Positions 47,980-55,183 of a stretch of DNA of 64,000 nt are shown here, one piece after another. Position 1 is the first letter of the stretch. The number at the start of each line of letters is the position of its first letter. Under the pieces are notes generated by a model. The model had not been told where the DNA came from. It made no database searches and worked only from the letters and a program-made list of their open reading frames with translations. The position numbers and the translations under genes were made by a program. The stretch is taken from contig NZ_CVLB01000001.1 in NCBI RefSeq assembly GCF_001049755.1, positions 1,692,995-1,756,994 of the forward strand, read 5' to 3'. Origin of the DNA: Brachyspira suanatina (GTDB taxonomy: Bacteria; Spirochaetota; Brachyspiria; Brachyspirales; Brachyspiraceae).

Positions 47980-50019
47980 TCAAGATATAGGTGCATTAGA
48001 TATATAAACATTCACTTTATACTTATTTTTTGTATTCTTTGAATTATATATACTTGTGGCTTTTGCAAGTCTATCATTAAACTTCTCAACCAAAAAATCA
48101 GCATCATCAACTTTAGGAGCTAGTATTACTTCTTTTAATGCTTTATTATCAAATATATAAAGATAATTTTTATAAGAACGCTTCATATTATCATCTATAT
48201 GTAAAGGATTACTGCCATATTCTACAAGCTGTATTATACGCATTTCCTGTTCCTCTATAAAAGACGAATCCTTTATCAAATATTGAATATTCATAAGAAG
48301 CTGATATGATAATGATAATTCCTCTGAATTAAAATCTTTAATAATTTTAAATATAGAATTAAATATATAACCTATATTATTTTTTAATTTTTCATAAACT
48401 TTTTTATCACAGCTCCAAACATTATACTCTTTATTTAAATCAATAATAATATTATCATAATCAGATTCACAAGGATTGAATATTATTTCATTATTTTTTG
48501 AATTATAATATAAAACAAAATACAAAGGTAATGTCTGTTCATTATAAAACTCTATATTAGAATAATTATTTTTATCATAAGAGAATGAAAATACTATACT
48601 GCTATTTAAATTATTAAAAGAAGTATCAAAAAATGACTTATCAAATACTAAACAGCATCCTGTACCCTCTTTATTATCATATTTACCATATAATCTATAC
48701 ATAGTTAAAGAATCTTTGCATCTGCTGAATGATGTCTGCAAGGCAATAAAATTATTAATATTTCCATATTTAGAATTTAATTTGTTATTTCTAAGAAGCT
48801 GCATCAATATTTTTCCCTCTTTAGGATCATTAGCATTCTTTACACTTGTCATTCTTAATTTATTTTTCTTTAAATACGTATTATATTTTGAATTATCTGA
48901 TTTATCATATCTCTTATCAAAAGCCATGTCATCGAAAACATCTATGCTTGTATAATGTGATATCTCATTAACTTTATCATCGTCTTTTACAGAAACTAAA
49001 TATAAAAATATATATTGCAATACCCAAAGTTTTTTTAATTTAGATGTATCCTTTATATCACGTGCTATAAAATTAAAATACTCTTCTTTTTCTTCAGTCC
49101 AAAAACTATTTTCATGCAATACTATATCAATAATTTTTTCTATGTTTATATATTTTATAAATCTTGATATTATATTAAATATAGTAACATTTCTAGATTC
49201 TTTAATGTCCAAAAGTAAAGTCAAAGCGTAATCATACTCTTCTAATCCTATCAATGCTTCTGACTTTAAAAAATATACTCTATCATATATAGTATCATCT
49301 TTCATAACATTCAATTCTATATACTCTTTATTTTTTACTATGGTATCTCCTTTTGAATTATTCTCATCTAAAATAGAAAGTGCTTTATCAAGACATTCTA
49401 TAGCATCTTTATATCTTTTTATATTTATAAGCAGACTAGCTTTATTTAAATACAATACCTCCAAAGATTTATTTATTTCAAAAGCCTTATCATAAATATT
49501 AAATGCTTCATCTATTCTTCCAAGTTTCTCTAAAACCATAGCAACATTCAAATAAGCATAATTGTATCCGAGTTCTAAAGCCTTATTAAAATAAAATAAT
49601 GCATCTTCATAACGTTCTAATTTTGAATATATTATTCCTATGTTAAAATAGGATATTTCAGATTTATCATTTATTTCTAATGCCATATTGAAAGCATACA
49701 AAGCTTCATCAAATGCCATTAATTTAGCAAGTATTATACCTTTATTGATAAAAGCCTTCTCATATAGCGGATTTATTTCTATTGCTTTATTATAGTAATC
49801 TATTGATTCCTCATATCTATTCAAATAATATAATGTTAATGCAGTTTTATAACAGCTTCTTGCAAAATATCTATCTCTATAATTTGTATCAAAATCTTTA
49901 TAATCATTTTCAAAATAACTTATTATTTTTAAATATATCCTAAGAGCAGAAGAATATTTTTCTAAATTAAAATGAAATCTCGCTTGAATGAACATACTAT
50001 CTATTTTATCTTTTAGCAT
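47980..50019 (-). CDS. TPR-repeat protein with DUF2971-like C-terminus
   Basis: The protein has 679 residues. At least five tetratricopeptide repeats fill residues 10-235 (IDYYNKAIEINPLYEKAFIN, DALYAFNMALEINDKSEIS, DALFYFNKALELGYNYAYLN). After a helical linker, residues about 355-660 resemble DUF2971: ISHYTSIDVFDDM, LRMTSVKNANDPKEGK, SFSRCKDSLTMYRLYG, GTGCCLVFDKSFF. DUF2971 proteins are uncharacterised and frequent in accessory loci. No signal peptide is visible, so it is probably cytoplasmic. It is the upstream neighbour of the small lipoprotein gene. Confidence 0.7.
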   Translation of the reverse strand: MLKDKIDSMFIQARFHFNLEKYSSALRIYLKIISYFENDYKDFDTNYRDRYFARSCYKTALTLYYLNRYEESIDYYNKAIEINPLYEKAFINKGIILAKLMAFDEALYAFNMALEINDKSEISYFNIGIIYSKLERYEDALFYFNKALELGYNYAYLNVAMVLEKLGRIDEAFNIYDKAFEINKSLEVLYLNKASLLINIKRYKDAIECLDKALSILDENNSKGDTIVKNKEYIELNVMKDDTIYDRVYFLKSEALIGLEEYDYALTLLLDIKESRNVTIFNIISRFIKYINIEKIIDIVLHENSFWTEEKEEYFNFIARDIKDTSKLKKLWVLQYIFLYLVSVKDDDKVNEISHYTSIDVFDDMAFDKRYDKSDNSKYNTYLKKNKLRMTSVKNANDPKEGKILMQLLRNNKLNSKYGNINNFIALQTSFSRCKDSLTMYRLYGKYDNKEGTGCCLVFDKSFFDTSFNNLNSSIVFSFSYDKNNYSNIEFYNEQTLPLYFVLYYNSKNNEIIFNPCESDYDNIIIDLNKEYNVWSCDKKVYEKLKNNIGYIFNSIFKIIKDFNSEELSLSYQLLMNIQYLIKDSSFIEEQEMRIIQLVEYGSNPLHIDDNMKRSYKNYLYIFDNKALKEVILAPKVDDADFLVEKFNDRLAKATSIYNSKNTKNKYKVNVYISNAPIS

Positions 50020-50176: not shown

Positions 50177-51430
50177 ATGAAAAACAGTAATAAAGGTTTT
50201 TTCGGTAAATTCGGAGGGAGATTCGTACCGGAAGCATTAGAAAAATTATTAATTGAATTGGAAGAAGCTTTCCTGCATTATATAAATGATAAGGAATTTT
50301 TAAGCGAGCTTGAAGAATTAAGAGCTGATTTCATAGGAAGACCTACTCCATTAATGTATGCTAAAAACTTGTCTGAGAAAATTGGAGGGGCAAAGATATA
50401 TGTCAAGTTAGAAGGACTTGCTCATACAGGAGCCCATAAGATTAATAATTCTATAGGACAGGCATTGCTTGCCAAAAAGATGGGTAAGAAAAAGATTATA
50501 GCAGAAACTGGTGCTGGTCAGCATGGACTTGCCACCGCAGCAGCTTGTGCTAAATTAGGACTTGAATGTTCTATTTATATGGGTGAGATAGATGTAAAAA
50601 GACAGCAGCCTAATGTAGCCTCTATGGAGTTATACGGTGCCAATGTAGTATCCGTTACTAAAGGAGGACGCGGACTTAAAGATGCTGTTGATGCGGCATT
50701 AGAAGATTGGGTAAAAGATTTAAAAGATACTCATTATTTACTTGGAAGTGCTGTAGGTCCTAGCCCTTATCCTGATATTGTAAGGACTTTTCAATCTGTA
50801 ATAGGAAAAGAATTGGATAAACAAATACAGGAAAAAAATTTGAATGTTAAAGCATTGATAGCATGCGTTGGAGGCGGTTCTAATGCTATAGGATTTTTTG
50901 AGCCTTTTATAGAAAGAGAAAATCCAAAACTAATAGCTGTAGAAGCTGGCGGAATAAGTATGAATCTTGGAGAGAATGCTATTAGAATGACAAATCCTCA
51001 TGCTAAAGATGTTGCTGCTCAGGGATATATGAGTAAATTTATTTTAAAAGAAGACGGAGAAATATCTGAAACTATGTCTATATCTGCAGGACTTGATTAT
51101 CCTGGAGTTGGTCCTCAGCTTGCATATTTAGGAGAGTCTGGAAGAATAGAATTCACTTATGCTACAGATAAAGAAGCAATAAACGCTGTAAAAGAATTTG
51201 CTAAAAATGAAGGTGTTATATTTGCATTAGAAAGTGCCCATGCTGGTGCTAAGGCTATAGAATATGCCAAGCAATATAGTAAAGATGATGTTATTATAGT
51301 TAATATGTCAGGAAGAGGAGATAAAGATATATTCATAACCTCTCCTATTTTCAGACCTGATAAATGGAAAGAATTCTTAAAAAGTGAATTGGAAAGATTA
51401 GAGAAAAATATAGACATTCACAAATTTTAA
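50177..51430 (+). CDS. trpB: Tryptophan synthase beta chain, without trpA nearby
   Basis: The protein has 417 residues. The PLP Lys is K88 in HTGAHKINN. ETGAGQHGLA and the phosphate-binding CVGGGSNAIG are canonical, and the length fits the TrpB1 class. It joins indole and serine to make tryptophan. The residue before HTGAHK is Ala where most TrpB have Asn. No trpA or other trp gene is adjacent, and the gene has its own promoter and terminator, so it may serve indole salvage; trpA could lie elsewhere in the genome. AAGGA precedes the ATG. Confidence 0.9.
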   Translation: MKNSNKGFFGKFGGRFVPEALEKLLIELEEAFLHYINDKEFLSELEELRADFIGRPTPLMYAKNLSEKIGGAKIYVKLEGLAHTGAHKINNSIGQALLAKKMGKKKIIAETGAGQHGLATAAACAKLGLECSIYMGEIDVKRQQPNVASMELYGANVVSVTKGGRGLKDAVDAALEDWVKDLKDTHYLLGSAVGPSPYPDIVRTFQSVIGKELDKQIQEKNLNVKALIACVGGGSNAIGFFEPFIERENPKLIAVEAGGISMNLGENAIRMTNPHAKDVAAQGYMSKFILKEDGEISETMSISAGLDYPGVGPQLAYLGESGRIEFTYATDKEAINAVKEFAKNEGVIFALESAHAGAKAIEYAKQYSKDDVIIVNMSGRGDKDIFITSPIFRPDKWKEFLKSELERLEKNIDIHKF

Positions 51431-51455
51431 CCTCACAATTATATATTTTTTATTT

Positions 51456-51501
51456 ATAGGTTTTTGTTTATTATTATTTAATATTCAAAAACCTATTTTT
51501 T
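51456..51501 (+). terminator. Rho-independent terminator of trpB
   Basis: ATAGGTTTTTG and CAAAAACCTAT form a perfect 11-bp stem followed by TTTTT. It lies 25 bases after the stop. Confidence 0.85.
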
Positions 51502-51776
51502 ATGATTTTAAATAAAAAAATAATATCAATAGTATGAATGATAAATATTCATACATAACTATTTATTCTTTATGAAAAGATTTTATTTTATAAAAACTAA
51601 TAATACTATATAGATAAGGAACATATTTTTATCAATATATTCTTGTAATAGTAAGTTTGTATACAATGAATATTCAGAAAAATTACTCGCATAATACATC
51701 AATTAGATATCAAATACTTTTATAATGTATGAGTATAATTAAGTTTCATAGAAAATAATATATTAAAAAAATATTT
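51502..51776. other. AT-rich gap, nothing recognised
   Basis: The space between the trpB terminator and the convergent signal peptidase gene contains no reading frame, hairpin or repeat that I can support. Confidence 0.5.
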
Positions 51777-52508
51777 TTATTTAGAAATAACTTTTCCATC
51801 TATATTAGAAAAATGAACATTACCAAAATCTCTGCTGTCATAACCATAATCCCTATTATCAGAAAGTACAAAATATTCATTATAACCTATTATATAAGGG
51901 CTGAAATTATCTCTTGTGGACACTTCAGCATCTAATATCCTGCCGTCAAATTCCACATTAGCCCAAGGCTCATTGAGAACTTCTCCGTTTATATAAACAA
52001 CCTTATTCCTTATTTCTATAGTTTCATTAGGAAGTCCAACAACTCTTTTTATTAAATATCTAGTATTTGAGATATTAACATTTCCAAAAGTTATAAAATA
52101 AACAAAGTATGAAACAAATCTTTTTAAAAAGAATTCTTTTTCAGTTCTAGGATCTATTATAAATACAATATCTCCCCTTTTAGGCCTTGAAAAAACAATA
52201 GTTTTTCCTGTAAGAGATGATACAAAAGGTTTCAATGCAATACCATATCTTAATTTAGATGTTATTAATATTTCATTAGGTTCTATAGTATTCATCATAG
52301 TAGAACTTTTCATTCTATCAATTCTTATAAATAAAGTAAAAATACCAAATAAAACAAAAGCAATAATAAATCCTAATATCAATCTAGCAACTACCCTATA
52401 AAGAAGGCTATTGCTTCTATAATATATAAAAATAAAAGGTTTTAATACAGCCTTGAGTGCATTAATTTTTTCTTTTTTTAATTCTTCTCTATCATAAGAA
52501 TAATTCAT
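51777..52508 (-). CDS. lepB: Signal peptidase I with Thr at the usual catalytic Ser position
   Basis: The protein has 243 residues. One membrane segment (about 42-60) is followed by the S26 fold. GDIVFIIDPRTEKEFFLKRF, YLIKRVVGLPNETIEIRN (with the general-base Lys) and SDNRDYGYDSRDFG (box E) are clear. Box B reads MKSSTMMNTIEPNE, so the residue aligned with E. coli Ser90 (SGSMMPT) is Thr70 and the following Pro is Asn. It should cleave Sec signal peptides on the outer face of the inner membrane if active. gatC lies 36 bases upstream on the same strand. Confidence 0.82.
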   Translation of the reverse strand: MNYSYDREELKKEKINALKAVLKPFIFIYYRSNSLLYRVVARLILGFIIAFVLFGIFTLFIRIDRMKSSTMMNTIEPNEILITSKLRYGIALKPFVSSLTGKTIVFSRPKRGDIVFIIDPRTEKEFFLKRFVSYFVYFITFGNVNISNTRYLIKRVVGLPNETIEIRNKVVYINGEVLNEPWANVEFDGRILDAEVSTRDNFSPYIIGYNEYFVLSDNRDYGYDSRDFGNVHFSNIDGKVISK

Positions 52509-52544
52509 CTATAATTGATGACCTCTGTAATTAAAATAAATTTT

Positions 52545-52868
52545 TTATGATTTTTTAGCCTGATGTTCGCTATTTTCTAAAGCAGCAGGAACAGCAGGAA
52601 CTACAATATATCCGTATTCACCGCTTCTGCATAAATTCATTATTACTTCATTATCCAATGTAGGACCTTGAACATCTTCTCTTAAATATTCAGGTAAATC
52701 TATAACATGATATAAAGGATCAATACCATCAACATTAACTTCAAATAATCCTTCTATAAATTCTAAATCTTTATTTAATCTATCTAACATTTCATTTTTT
52801 TGATTTTCTTCTATTCTTAATCTTGTTTGATATAAAAGAGCTTCTAATTCTTCTCTGTCTGTAGTCAT
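52545..52868 (-). CDS. gatC: Asp/Glu-tRNA amidotransferase subunit C
   Basis: The protein has 107 residues. LNKDLEFIEGLFEVNVDGID, PLYHVIDLPEYLREDV and GEYGYIVVPAV reproduce the GatC pattern (helix, V-G-x-x-P loop, LREDxV, VPxV end). GatC stabilises GatA-GatB, which converts misacylated Glu-tRNA-Gln or Asp-tRNA-Asn. gatA and gatB are not in the window. AAGGA lies seven bases before this ATG; an upstream in-frame start at 52901 would add an unrelated hydrophobic leader. It is probably co-transcribed with lepB. Confidence 0.82.
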   Translation of the reverse strand: MTTDREELEALLYQTRLRIEENQKNEMLDRLNKDLEFIEGLFEVNVDGIDPLYHVIDLPEYLREDVQGPTLDNEVIMNLCRSGEYGYIVVPAVPAALENSEHQAKKS

Positions 52869-53107
52869 TATTATATCCTTAAAAATTATAATTATAAACA
52901 TAATATACTATAATCAATAATTTTTCAATAGTTTATATATTTTTTTAATATCATTTATAATACTGCAAAATCACTAAAAATTATAAATTTTATATTTTAG
53001 GTATTTAAATTTTGTGTAAAAAGATGTATCATTTTTTTTAAAATTAATTAACATAATATTAAATTAATAAGTAAAAAATATACTAAAAAATACCGTTATT
53101 TATACTA

Positions 53108-53136
53108 TTGATAAAAATTTTTTGTTAATATAATAT
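53108..53136 (+). promoter_or_regulatory. Promoter of the mrdA-rodA operon
   Basis: TTGATA (53108-53113) and TAATAT (53131-53136) are separated by 17 bases, about 35 bases before the start codon. Confidence 0.5.
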
Positions 53137-53170
53137 TAATAATAATTCTTAAGAGGTAAAAGGTTTATTT

Positions 53171-55183
53171 ATGAATTTTTTAGAAATAGAATTAAATAAA
53201 GATAAAAAAATAATAAGCGAAGATTTTAAATATAGGAAAAGATTAATAGTAGTATTTATAATATCAATATTGGTTGCTGCTTTATTATTAATAAGATTAT
53301 TCTATTTACAAATAATACAAAATGAGCATTATGACAGTTTAGCAAGAAACAATAAAGAACAAATAATACCTATAGATGCATATCGAGGAGAAATTTACGA
53401 TAGAAATGGTGTTATAGTAGCAGAAAATATCAAAACATACACAATGTATATGATACCTGTTTATTTACCTAAAAATTATTTTGAAAGAGAAGAATTATTA
53501 TACAGAGTTTCTAAAGTATTTAATATAGATTTAGGACATATAAAATCAAGTTTAGAAAAAGTATCAAAAAACAGCTATGAATCAGTAGAGATATCAGAAA
53601 ATATATCTATGTCTCAAATGAGTTATTTGGCTGAAAGATCTGAAGAGTATCCTGGAGTATATTATGGAAGTAAGTCCATTAGGCATTATCCTCTTGGTGA
53701 AACAATGACGCATGTATTGGGATATATAGGAAACATATCTCAGGAAGAATTTGAAAGCAAACAGGCTGAAGGATACAGAAGAAACAGTGTAATAGGTAAA
53801 GAAGGAGTTGAACAATTTTACGATAAAGAACTTAGAGGAATAGACGGTTATGAGCAATGGATAGTTGACTCAAGAAACAGAGTAAAAGAAACTATAACTC
53901 CAGCAATAGGAAAGCCTATACCGGGAAAAAAACTCATATTAAGTATAGATTCTAAAGTACAGAAAGATGCGGAAGATTTAATAAAAGGACAGGTAGGAAC
54001 TATAATAGTATCAAAACCTACTACAGGTGAAATACTAGCTATGGTAAGTTCTCCTTGGTATGATCCTAACATCTTTATAGGTAAAATAGACAGACAAAAA
54101 TATGCAGAACTTATAAATAACCCAGCAAACCCATTCTGGAATAAAGCTATAAGAGGAAGATATCCTCCGGGGTCTACATTCAAGCTTGTAACTGCTGTAG
54201 GTGCATTAACTGAAAAAAGAATAGGAGTTAATACTACAAGATACTGTGGAGGCGGTATGCTTCTTGAAAATAGATTCTATAGATGTACAGGACAGCATGG
54301 CTATGTAAATATGTATAAAGCTATTCAGTTTTCATGCAACACATATTTCTATAACCTAGCTTATGAATTAGGACCTAATTTCATTAAAAGATATGCTGAA
54401 ATGTTAGGTTTCGGTGATACTACAGGCATAGATTTACCAGGTGAAAAGGTTGGTGTTGTTCCTAGTGCTGATTGGAAAAGAAGAAAAATTGGGGAGTATT
54501 GGTGGGATGGTGATACTATTCAATACGTTATGGGACAAGGATATATGTCTGCTACTCCTATAGCTGTACATATGGCTACTTCAGCTATAATAAATGACGG
54601 AGTAATGTACAGACCTCATGTTGTTAAAGAAATAAGAAGTTCTCAAACAGATGAACTTATATACAATAATGATAAAGTAATAATAAAGAAATTAGATATA
54701 GATAAGAATATATTTACAGTAGTAAAAGAAGGTATGAGAATGGCTGTAACAGGAGGTACTGCTAGAAATGGTGCTTGGTCTCCTAATATTAAATTAGCTG
54801 CAAAAACAGGTACAGCTCAAAACGCACAAGGTAAAGACCATACTTGGGTGACAATATTCGGACCTTATAATCCTAGACCTACTGATGATATGATAGCCGT
54901 TACAGTTATGCTTGAGCATAGTGGTGGTGGCGGCGGTACTACTGCTGGCCCTATTGCTACTGCAATGCTTCGTTCTATATTAGGCGGAGAGGATGCTGTA
55001 GAAGCTAGAAACGTTATTTATGCTAGAATGCAGTATATATATCAACAGATAAGACTTGCAAGAGAAAAAATGAGAGCAGAGGCAGAAGCTCAGGAAAACG
55101 GAGAAACTTTAGAAAATATTAATGGGGAACAGCAAAAACAAGAAGAAAAAACTGAAGAAGACGAGAGGATAAAATATGAATGA
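53171..55183 (+). CDS. mrdA: Penicillin-binding protein 2
   Basis: The protein has 670 residues. A membrane segment at about 26-45 precedes the pedestal domain (RGEIYDRNGVIVAEN). The transpeptidase domain has STFK (Ser335), SCN (388-390) and KTG (545-547). A short Gln/Glu-rich tail ends the protein. It is the elongation-specific transpeptidase that works with the RodA glycosyltransferase, whose gene overlaps its end by 8 bases, so translation is probably coupled. AGGTAAAAGG precedes the ATG. Confidence 0.92.
   Translation: MNFLEIELNKDKKIISEDFKYRKRLIVVFIISILVAALLLIRLFYLQIIQNEHYDSLARNNKEQIIPIDAYRGEIYDRNGVIVAENIKTYTMYMIPVYLPKNYFEREELLYRVSKVFNIDLGHIKSSLEKVSKNSYESVEISENISMSQMSYLAERSEEYPGVYYGSKSIRHYPLGETMTHVLGYIGNISQEEFESKQAEGYRRNSVIGKEGVEQFYDKELRGIDGYEQWIVDSRNRVKETITPAIGKPIPGKKLILSIDSKVQKDAEDLIKGQVGTIIVSKPTTGEILAMVSSPWYDPNIFIGKIDRQKYAELINNPANPFWNKAIRGRYPPGSTFKLVTAVGALTEKRIGVNTTRYCGGGMLLENRFYRCTGQHGYVNMYKAIQFSCNTYFYNLAYELGPNFIKRYAEMLGFGDTTGIDLPGEKVGVVPSADWKRRKIGEYWWDGDTIQYVMGQGYMSATPIAVHMATSAIINDGVMYRPHVVKEIRSSQTDELIYNNDKVIIKKLDIDKNIFTVVKEGMRMAVTGGTARNGAWSPNIKLAAKTGTAQNAQGKDHTWVTIFGPYNPRPTDDMIAVTVMLEHSGGGGGTTAGPIATAMLRSILGGEDAVEARNVIYARMQYIYQQIRLAREKMRAEAEAQENGETLENINGEQQKQEEKTEEDERIKYE

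What the first reader, a model, noticed from the sequence alone, without database searches (positions are those of the whole stretch)
51777..52508. Signal peptidase I with Thr in place of the catalytic Ser
Box B reads KSSTMMNT where the family has SGSMxPT. The residue just before Met, the nucleophile in E. coli (Ser90), is Thr70, and the Pro is Asn. The general-base Lys and box E are intact. Either Thr serves as nucleophile, the preceding Ser has taken over, or this is a non-catalytic paralogue.
Basis: partly seen in the sequence, partly recalled or inferred. Interest (0 to 1): 0.5.

Follow-up and report, generated by a model that had tools for sequence, protein, structure and literature searches.

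The report
Signal peptidase relative with threonine nucleophile
A gut spirochaete carries, next to two ordinary signal peptidases, a third conserved relative in which a threonine stands where the catalytic serine should be; it is either an unusual threonine-using enzyme or a former enzyme kept for another job.

Summary
In detail: the minus-strand gene 51777-52508 (243 aa) is a type I signal peptidase (S26) homologue, and a gap-free alignment to E. coli SPase puts Thr70 on Ser90, Ser69 on Gly89 and Ser68 on Ser88. Lys154 is kept. Box E is not fully intact: the Gly272 and Ser278 positions read Ser216 and Gly222. The genome has two further S26 genes, both Ser/Lys.

The gene is in 31 of 31 class genomes; the nucleophile position is Thr in 27, Ser in 2, Ala in 2, and Lys154 is kept in 31. 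On the tree it groups, not firmly, with a Spirochaetota SPase-like group in which 17 of 23 sampled members lack the Ser/Lys dyad.

I favour a restricted-role Thr70-Lys154 enzyme (0.48). A non-catalytic, SipA/SpsA-like role is nearly as likely (0.40), because the two Ala orthologues are intact genes under purifying selection. Ser69 as nucleophile is unlikely (0.05): it is absent in the 5 class orthologues outside the genus. No activity evidence exists. Verdict: real, conserved, new variant of a known kind.

The parts
51777..52508 (-). third S26 (signal peptidase I-like) gene, 243 aa, stop included
   Evidence: 31 of 31 class genomes carry the orthologue
52329..52403 (-). hydrophobic N-terminal helix, residues 36-60, likely membrane anchor
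   Evidence: sequence and helix 35-60 in the AlphaFold2 model; no transmembrane predictor was run
52287..52307 (-). box B, residues 68-74 S-S-T-M-M-N-T; Ser68 = E. coli Ser88, Ser69 = Gly89, Thr70 = Ser90
   Evidence: gap-free profile alignment to PDB 9nlo
52299..52301 (-). codon of Thr70 (ACT)
52047..52049 (-). codon of Lys154, general-base position (E. coli Lys145)
   Evidence: kept in 31 of 31 class orthologues
51822..51863 (-). box E, residues 216-229 S-D-N-R-D-Y-G-Y-D-S-R-D-F-G; Ser216 = Gly272, Gly222 = Ser278
   Evidence: alignment; counts
51909..51947 (-). residues 188-200 DGRILDAEVSTRD, the D-x-R ... R-D stretch shared with the other spirochaetal SPase-like group
52545..52901 (-). gatC, directly upstream on the same strand; 36 nt between its stop codon and this start codon
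   Evidence: TIGR00135 59.1 bits, cut-off 47.1; a gatC homologue is the upstream neighbour in 9 of 12 class loci examined. No terminator-like site in 51400-53200, but 0.3 are expected by chance, so this says little

Best explanation
It is the Brachyspira-class branch of an accessory signal peptidase I-like paralogue of spirochaetes. Shown: it has the S26 sequence signature and predicted fold, a hydrophobic N-terminal helix, Thr70 in the nucleophile place, Lys154 in the general-base place and Ser68 in the Ser88 place, and it stands beside two Ser/Lys signal peptidase genes in the same genome. Inferred: Thr70, deprotonated by Lys154, attacks the scissile bond of a small set of exported substrates, so it would be a Thr/Lys-dyad signal peptidase, probably slow or substrate-restricted, while the two Ser/Lys enzymes do the bulk of signal-peptide removal. 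In one pair of sister species the nucleophile has since been lost (Ala).
For: S26 by profile and predicted fold: model pLDDT 81.1, pTM 0.75; matches to active S. aureus SpsB 4wvi Z 15.3, rmsd 2.5 over 134, and E. coli 1b12_A Z 13.1, rmsd 3.7 over 147. Thr70 = Ser90. Lys154 has 0 inferred changes among 31 class orthologues and Ser68 has 1 (to Thr), while the median core site has 3. In the related spirochaetal group the base is Lys in only 6 of 23 and the Ser88 position is Asp or Glu in 15 of 23, although Arg155 stays in all 18 members listed. A hydroxyl at position 70 is kept in 29 of 31 (27 Thr, 2 Ser). Purifying selection: dN/dS 0.031-0.115 in the 10 within-genus Thr-Thr pairs that I chose. 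The Ala state is confined to one branch of two sister species (support 100/100), and that pair has the highest dN/dS of the near pairs (0.117 against 0.031-0.085; not tested statistically). A natural Ser-to-Thr change with reported activity exists in another protease family, TSP50 (PMC3344824, abstract and passages).
Against: Two orthologues (G001, G003) have Ala at position 70, one with a 4-residue insert after Met71, yet are intact, still match TIGR02227 (G001, 97.2 bits), keep gatC as neighbour (shown for G001), keep Lys154 and evolve at dN/dS 0.117. Position 70 changes as often as the median core site (3 changes), unlike a typical catalytic residue, and the zero changes of Lys154 are shared by 38 of 184 core sites. 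The Gly272 and Ser278 positions are both altered in 29 of 31. The gene groups with proteins that often lack the dyad. The loss of the Ser88-type residue in that group is not tied to loss of the dyad: its 6 Ser/Lys members also have Asp there. Engineered Ser-to-Thr greatly compromises thrombin and trypsin, and the same paper says that Thr is not documented in any trypsin-family active site, which is at odds with TSP50 (PMC8695361, passages). No activity data exist.
Confidence: 0.48

Rival explanations
1. A non-catalytic signal peptidase-like protein: it keeps the groove and membrane anchor and works by binding exported proteins or another envelope partner (compare SipA of Streptococcus pyogenes in pilus assembly), so the nucleophile position drifts among Thr, Ser and Ala.
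For: Ala orthologues under purifying selection; the nucleophile position changes at the median rate; the related group lacks the Ser/Lys dyad in 17 of 23 members, and the 58-row tree needs at least 5 changes of dyad state, the Ala branch included; SipA has the same fold (4n31_A Z 14.3, rmsd 3.4 over 134) and failed to show detectable peptidase activity (PMC4049620, passages); SpsA of S. aureus lacks two conserved catalytic residues and is dispensable (PMC12445088, passages); two Ser/Lys SPase genes are present in the same genome.
Against: Lys154 and a Ser/Thr at position 68 are kept in 31 of 31, a hydroxyl at position 70 in 29 of 31, whereas SipA lacks both the Ser and the Lys and 17 of 17 dyad-lacking members of the related group have no Lys at the base position.
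Confidence: 0.4
2. The preceding Ser69 has taken over as nucleophile, with a shifted loop.
For: Ser69 is present in all 26 genus genomes, including the two with Ala70.
Against: Absent in the 5 class orthologues outside the genus (Asn 2, Asp 2, Glu 1), two of which have Ser70; no gap in the alignment to E. coli; Met71 unchanged in the 31 class orthologues and in the 18 related-group members listed.
Confidence: 0.05

Closest known systems
Bacterial type I signal peptidase (E. coli LepB, S. aureus SpsB; Pfam PF10502, TIGR02227)
   Same: Family profile, predicted fold, box B and box D register, Lys base, D-S-R of box E
   Different: Thr for the nucleophile Ser, Asn for the box B Pro, Ser for Gly272, Gly for Ser278
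SipA of Streptococcus pyogenes and SpsA of S. aureus (SPase-like, reported inactive)
   Same: SPase fold (SipA) without the standard Ser nucleophile; extra to a working SPase
   Different: SipA lacks the Lys as well and SpsA lacks two catalytic residues; here Lys and the Ser88-type residue are kept and the nucleophile position still has a hydroxyl
TSP50, a trypsin-family protein with Thr in the Ser place
   Same: Natural Ser-to-Thr change at the nucleophile of a serine protease fold
   Different: Chymotrypsin (S1) family with a His-Asp-Thr triad, human; unrelated fold
Spirochaetal SPase-like paralogues seen here (23 sequences outside the class)
   Same: Group with this gene on the tree (92/84, below the starred level); most share the D-x-R ... 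R-D stretch
   Different: 17 of 23 lack a Ser/Lys dyad; 15 of 23 have Asp or Glu at the Ser88 position; no match to the window's GatC (blastp, E <= 1e-4) in the 16 loci read

Membership tests
Type I signal peptidase (S26A), catalytic | Family profile above curated cut-off | tested here: met
   PF10502 103 bits against 22.9; TIGR02227 101.8 against 47. The Ala orthologue passes too (97.2 bits), so this does not show activity
Type I signal peptidase (S26A), catalytic | SPase fold | tested here: met
   Predicted model matches 4wvi Z 15.3 and 1b12_A Z 13.1; inactive SipA 4n31_A Z 14.3 as well
Type I signal peptidase (S26A), catalytic | Ser nucleophile before the box B Met | tested here: not met
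   Thr70. So it is filed as an S26 homologue, not as a canonical Ser/Lys signal peptidase
Type I signal peptidase (S26A), catalytic | Lys general base | tested here: met
   Lys154, 31 of 31 class orthologues
Type I signal peptidase (S26A), catalytic | Box E Gly272 and Ser278 | tested here: not met
   Ser216 and Gly222; 101 of 103 other spirochaetal SPases have Gly/Ser
Type I signal peptidase (S26A), catalytic | N-terminal membrane anchor | tested here: inconclusive
   Hydrophobic predicted helix 35-60; no transmembrane predictor was run
Type I signal peptidase (S26A), catalytic | Cleaves signal peptides | not testable with these tools
   needs an assay
SipA-type inactive SPase-like protein | Both Ser and Lys of the dyad missing | tested here: not met
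   Lys154 present
N-terminal-nucleophile threonine proteases (proteasome type; definition recalled) | Thr becomes residue 1 of the mature chain | tested here: not met
   Thr70 follows the hydrophobic N-terminal helix, inside box B of an S26 domain

The most novel reading that the evidence does not exclude
A natural signal peptidase that works with a Thr/Lys catalytic dyad, kept across nearly all of the genus Brachyspira and found in other families of the class, standing beside Ser-using orthologues, with a Gly272-to-Ser and Ser278-to-Gly exchange that reshapes how Lys154 is held.
Probability: 0.45. Interest if true: 0.62.

Novelty: new variant of a known kind. Interest (0 to 1): 0.42.

Why it matters
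A paper on thrombin says that Thr, though as good a nucleophile, is not documented in trypsin-family active sites and that its methyl group clashes with the substrate (PMC8695361, passages). Here nature supplies an orthologous series with Ser, Thr and Ala in one place of a Ser/Lys-dyad protease with an otherwise mostly kept site, so the question whether Thr can serve there, and at what cost, becomes directly testable. If the protein is non-catalytic instead, it points to a group of retired signal peptidases in spirochaetes kept for an unknown task, which family profiles still name signal peptidase I (shown for the Ala orthologue).

Tried and rejected
Misalignment: rejected; gap-free register to E. 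coli SPase and Met71 unchanged in the class.

Sequencing or assembly error: rejected; Thr in 24 of 26 genus genomes, with synonymous codon variants.

Pseudogene: rejected; no stop inside any of the 31 class orthologues, dN/dS far below 1 in the pairs computed.

Sole signal peptidase of the cell: rejected; two other S26 genes with Ser/Lys; 12 of 13 class paralogues fetched show box B and all 12 are Ser/Lys, the thirteenth (L183) lacks box B in the open frame read.

Structure from close relatives only: failed (pLDDT 51.4); repeated with 43 rows (pLDDT 81.1).

Tree alternative: a clade of this gene with the f5-type Ser/Lys SPases is not rejected (p-AU 0.171), so the grouping with the dyad-lacking group is favoured, not proven; that clade was named after seeing the tree.

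Literature: three searches aimed at a Thr nucleophile in signal peptidase (3, 9 and 1 papers) listed no title or abstract start that reports one; I opened passages of four of the papers listed there (PMC4049620, PMC12984324, PMC2259416, PMC10517255), the others not. PMC10517255, the single hit, is about uricase. The search for signal peptidase with Brachyspira listed 5 papers, of which I opened one: PMC8116685 names lepB only in a list of putative virulence-factor matches (passage). The search for spirochaete lepB paralogues listed 12 of 36 papers; I opened passages of PMC4758666, where the terms met other things. The library holds open-licence papers only, so absence there is weak.

Sampling limits: the 162 S26 sequences are not a random sample. 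They come from the best matches of a profile of this gene, from listed rows of a Pfam search of 90 genomes (whose list was cut), and from class paralogues that I chose. For one search, 5 of 162 were dropped: 3 same-gene duplicates (L064, L070, L074), L145 (masked bases in the frame read) and L183 (no box B). The 23-member comparison group and the D-x-R ... R-D pattern were chosen after looking at the tree and the alignment. The dN/dS pairs were picked by hand (15 pairs, Nei-Gojobori).

Full report
WHAT IS THERE. The gene lies at 51777-52508 on the minus strand and encodes 243 residues. It matches PF10502 with 103 bits and TIGR02227 with 101.8 bits, both above the curated cut-offs. The upstream neighbour, 36 nt away on the same strand, is gatC (TIGR00135 59.1 bits; sequence); beyond it lie mrdA and a rodA-like gene on the other strand, and trpB lies downstream. 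A gatC homologue precedes the gene in 9 of 12 class loci examined: 9 of 9 from the genus and the genus nearest to it (g2), 0 of 3 from g3 and family f2. The nearest relatives found are Brachyspira (unnamed MAGs 98%, B. hampsonii 95% identical).

THE SITE. A profile of ten class orthologues aligns with E. coli SPase (PDB 9nlo) without a gap through box B: Ser68, Ser69, Thr70, Met71 fall on Ser88, Gly89, Ser90, Met91. Box E aligns as S-D-N-R-D-Y-G-Y-D-S-R on G-D-N-R-D-N-S-A-D-S-R (the E. coli numbers are recalled and agree with the residues named in PMC2259416 and PMC12984324, passages). Those passages give Ser88, Ser90 and Lys145 as important for catalysis, Gly272-Asn274 as positioning Ser90, and Ser278 as touching the bound ligand. 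That Ser88 helps the oxyanion site and that Ser278 holds Lys145 is recalled and comes from no call.

THE REST OF THE GENOME. PF10502 finds three genes in the window's genome (4 match rows, two of them in one open frame). The other two read NKSMEPT (180-aa ORF) and PTGSMIP (355-aa ORF), both with Lys. Of 13 such paralogues fetched from class genomes, 12 show box B and all 12 are Ser/Lys.

ORTHOLOGUES. All 31 class genomes searched have the gene, without a stop inside. The nucleophile position is Thr in 27, Ser in 2 (G026, G028) and Ala in 2 (G001, G003). Within the genus it is Thr in 24 of 26. The two genomes of another family (G029, G030) have Thr. Parsimony on a subset of 22 orthologues needs at least 3 changes, as it does on all 31. 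Lys154 is kept in 31 of 31, Ser or Thr at position 68 in 31 of 31. Position 69 is Ser in 26 of 26 genus genomes and Asn, Asp or Glu in the other 5. Counting changes on a tree of the 31, the core (residues 60-243) has a median of 3 changes a site; Lys154, Met71, Asp217, Asn218, Asp224, Ser225 and Arg226 have 0, as have 38 of 184 core sites in all; Ser68 has 1, position 70 has 3, position 222 has 5. The base is thus held as a catalytic residue would be, though not uniquely; the nucleophile position is not. dN/dS for the near pairs computed is 0.031-0.085 for five Thr pairs and 0.117 for the Ala pair; across all 15 pairs it is 0.031-0.246. Family profiles do not see the difference: the Ala orthologue still passes TIGR02227 (97.2 bits against 47).

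THE WIDER FAMILY. In a phylum search 57 of 392 genomes match the profile at E <= 1e-22. I aligned 162 spirochaetal S26 sequences (not a random sample); 157 were counted after dropping 5. Of 103 other spirochaetal SPases, 101 have Ser/Lys and 2 Ser/Arg; 101 have Gly/Ser at positions 272/278. A group of 23 sequences from outside the class clusters with the class gene (92/84 in the careful tree, below the starred level; a similar set at 95 in the quick tree). Of these 23, 17 lack the Ser/Lys dyad (Ser/Arg 4, Ala/Arg 2, Leu/Ser 2, Tyr/Cys 2 and seven single cases), and 15 have Asp or Glu at the Ser88 position, including the 6 that do have Ser/Lys. A stretch D-x-R ... R-D is found in 30 of 31 class genes, in 14 of 19 non-class sequences without a Ser/Lys dyad, and in 11 of 107 non-class sequences with it, 6 of which belong to the group of 23. 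The pattern was defined after looking. A tree joining the class gene to the f5-type Ser/Lys SPases instead is not rejected (p-AU 0.171). Among 58 distinct S26 reading frames from viral contigs, 57 have Ser and 1 Gly at the nucleophile, none Thr. One sequence of the spirochaetal set outside the class has Thr, but without Lys (L151, Thr/Ala).

FOLD. With 43 rows the AlphaFold2 model reaches pLDDT 81.1, pTM 0.75; an earlier model from 17 close rows failed. It matches S. aureus SpsB (4wvi_A Z 15.3), SipA, reported inactive (4n31_A Z 14.3), and E. coli SPase (1b12_A Z 13.1) (Foldseek). The fold therefore does not separate active from inactive. Residues 221-224 are below pLDDT 50, and no coordinates were available, so the Thr-Lys geometry is not measured.

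READING. Two explanations remain close. For catalysis: joint retention of Lys154, a Ser/Thr at 68 and a hydroxyl at 70 in 29 of 31 species, in contrast to most of the related group, and Thr/Ser interchange. Against: the Ala branch, the ordinary rate at position 70, the altered box E, the company on the tree, and the known cost of Ser-to-Thr in thrombin and trypsin (PMC8695361, passages). A natural Thr-for-Ser protease has been reported in the trypsin family (TSP50, PMC3344824, abstract and passages), while PMC8695361 says that Thr is not documented in that family's active sites, so even that precedent is at odds with another paper. I put a Thr/Lys enzyme at 0.48, a non-catalytic role at 0.40 and Ser69 at 0.05; the rest is left to other readings. 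Ser/Gly or Ser/Ala at positions 272/278 (29 of 31 class genes; Ser/Gly in 5 of 23 of the related group) might let Ser216 hold Lys154; this is inference only.

STATUS. Homologue of S26 by sequence and predicted fold; not a canonical Ser/Lys signal peptidase, since the Ser test failed. Interest is moderate: a conserved, cleanly testable active-site variant with no activity evidence yet.

Noticed in passing
L065, L066, L068, L077, L155, L148, L153, L157, L151, L164, L176, L141, L163, L150, L160, L175, L171: Spirochaetal SPase-like paralogues without a Ser/Lys dyad (17 of a group of 23), while the box E Asp/Ser/Arg residues mostly stay (18 members listed). Those found in the Pfam search still score over the PF10502 cut-off.
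   Followed up: partly
L172, L173: Two SPases of one other spirochaete family (f19; one of the genomes has 1.1 Mb) with Ser kept but Arg in place of the general-base Lys, outside the group above.
   Followed up: no
L200, L214, L215: Viral-contig S26 proteins with His in the Lys place; a Ser/His pair is recalled for SipW and archaeal types.
   Followed up: no
L204 541-1119: Viral-contig S26 protein with Gly at the nucleophile (SKGM) and Lys kept; its box D and box E letters equal those of L202, which has Ser.
   Followed up: no
window 47983-50019, minus strand: 679-aa protein with TPR repeats and a weak DUF2971 match (23.5 bits, cut-off 22) in its C-terminal half.
   Followed up: no
L006 4774-6018, L009 4777-6003, L012 4750-5997, L045 2249-3487: In these relatives an MFS transporter gene follows the third SPase gene (Pfam match shown for L006; the others resemble it by their N-termini); in the window trpB lies there instead.
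   Followed up: partly
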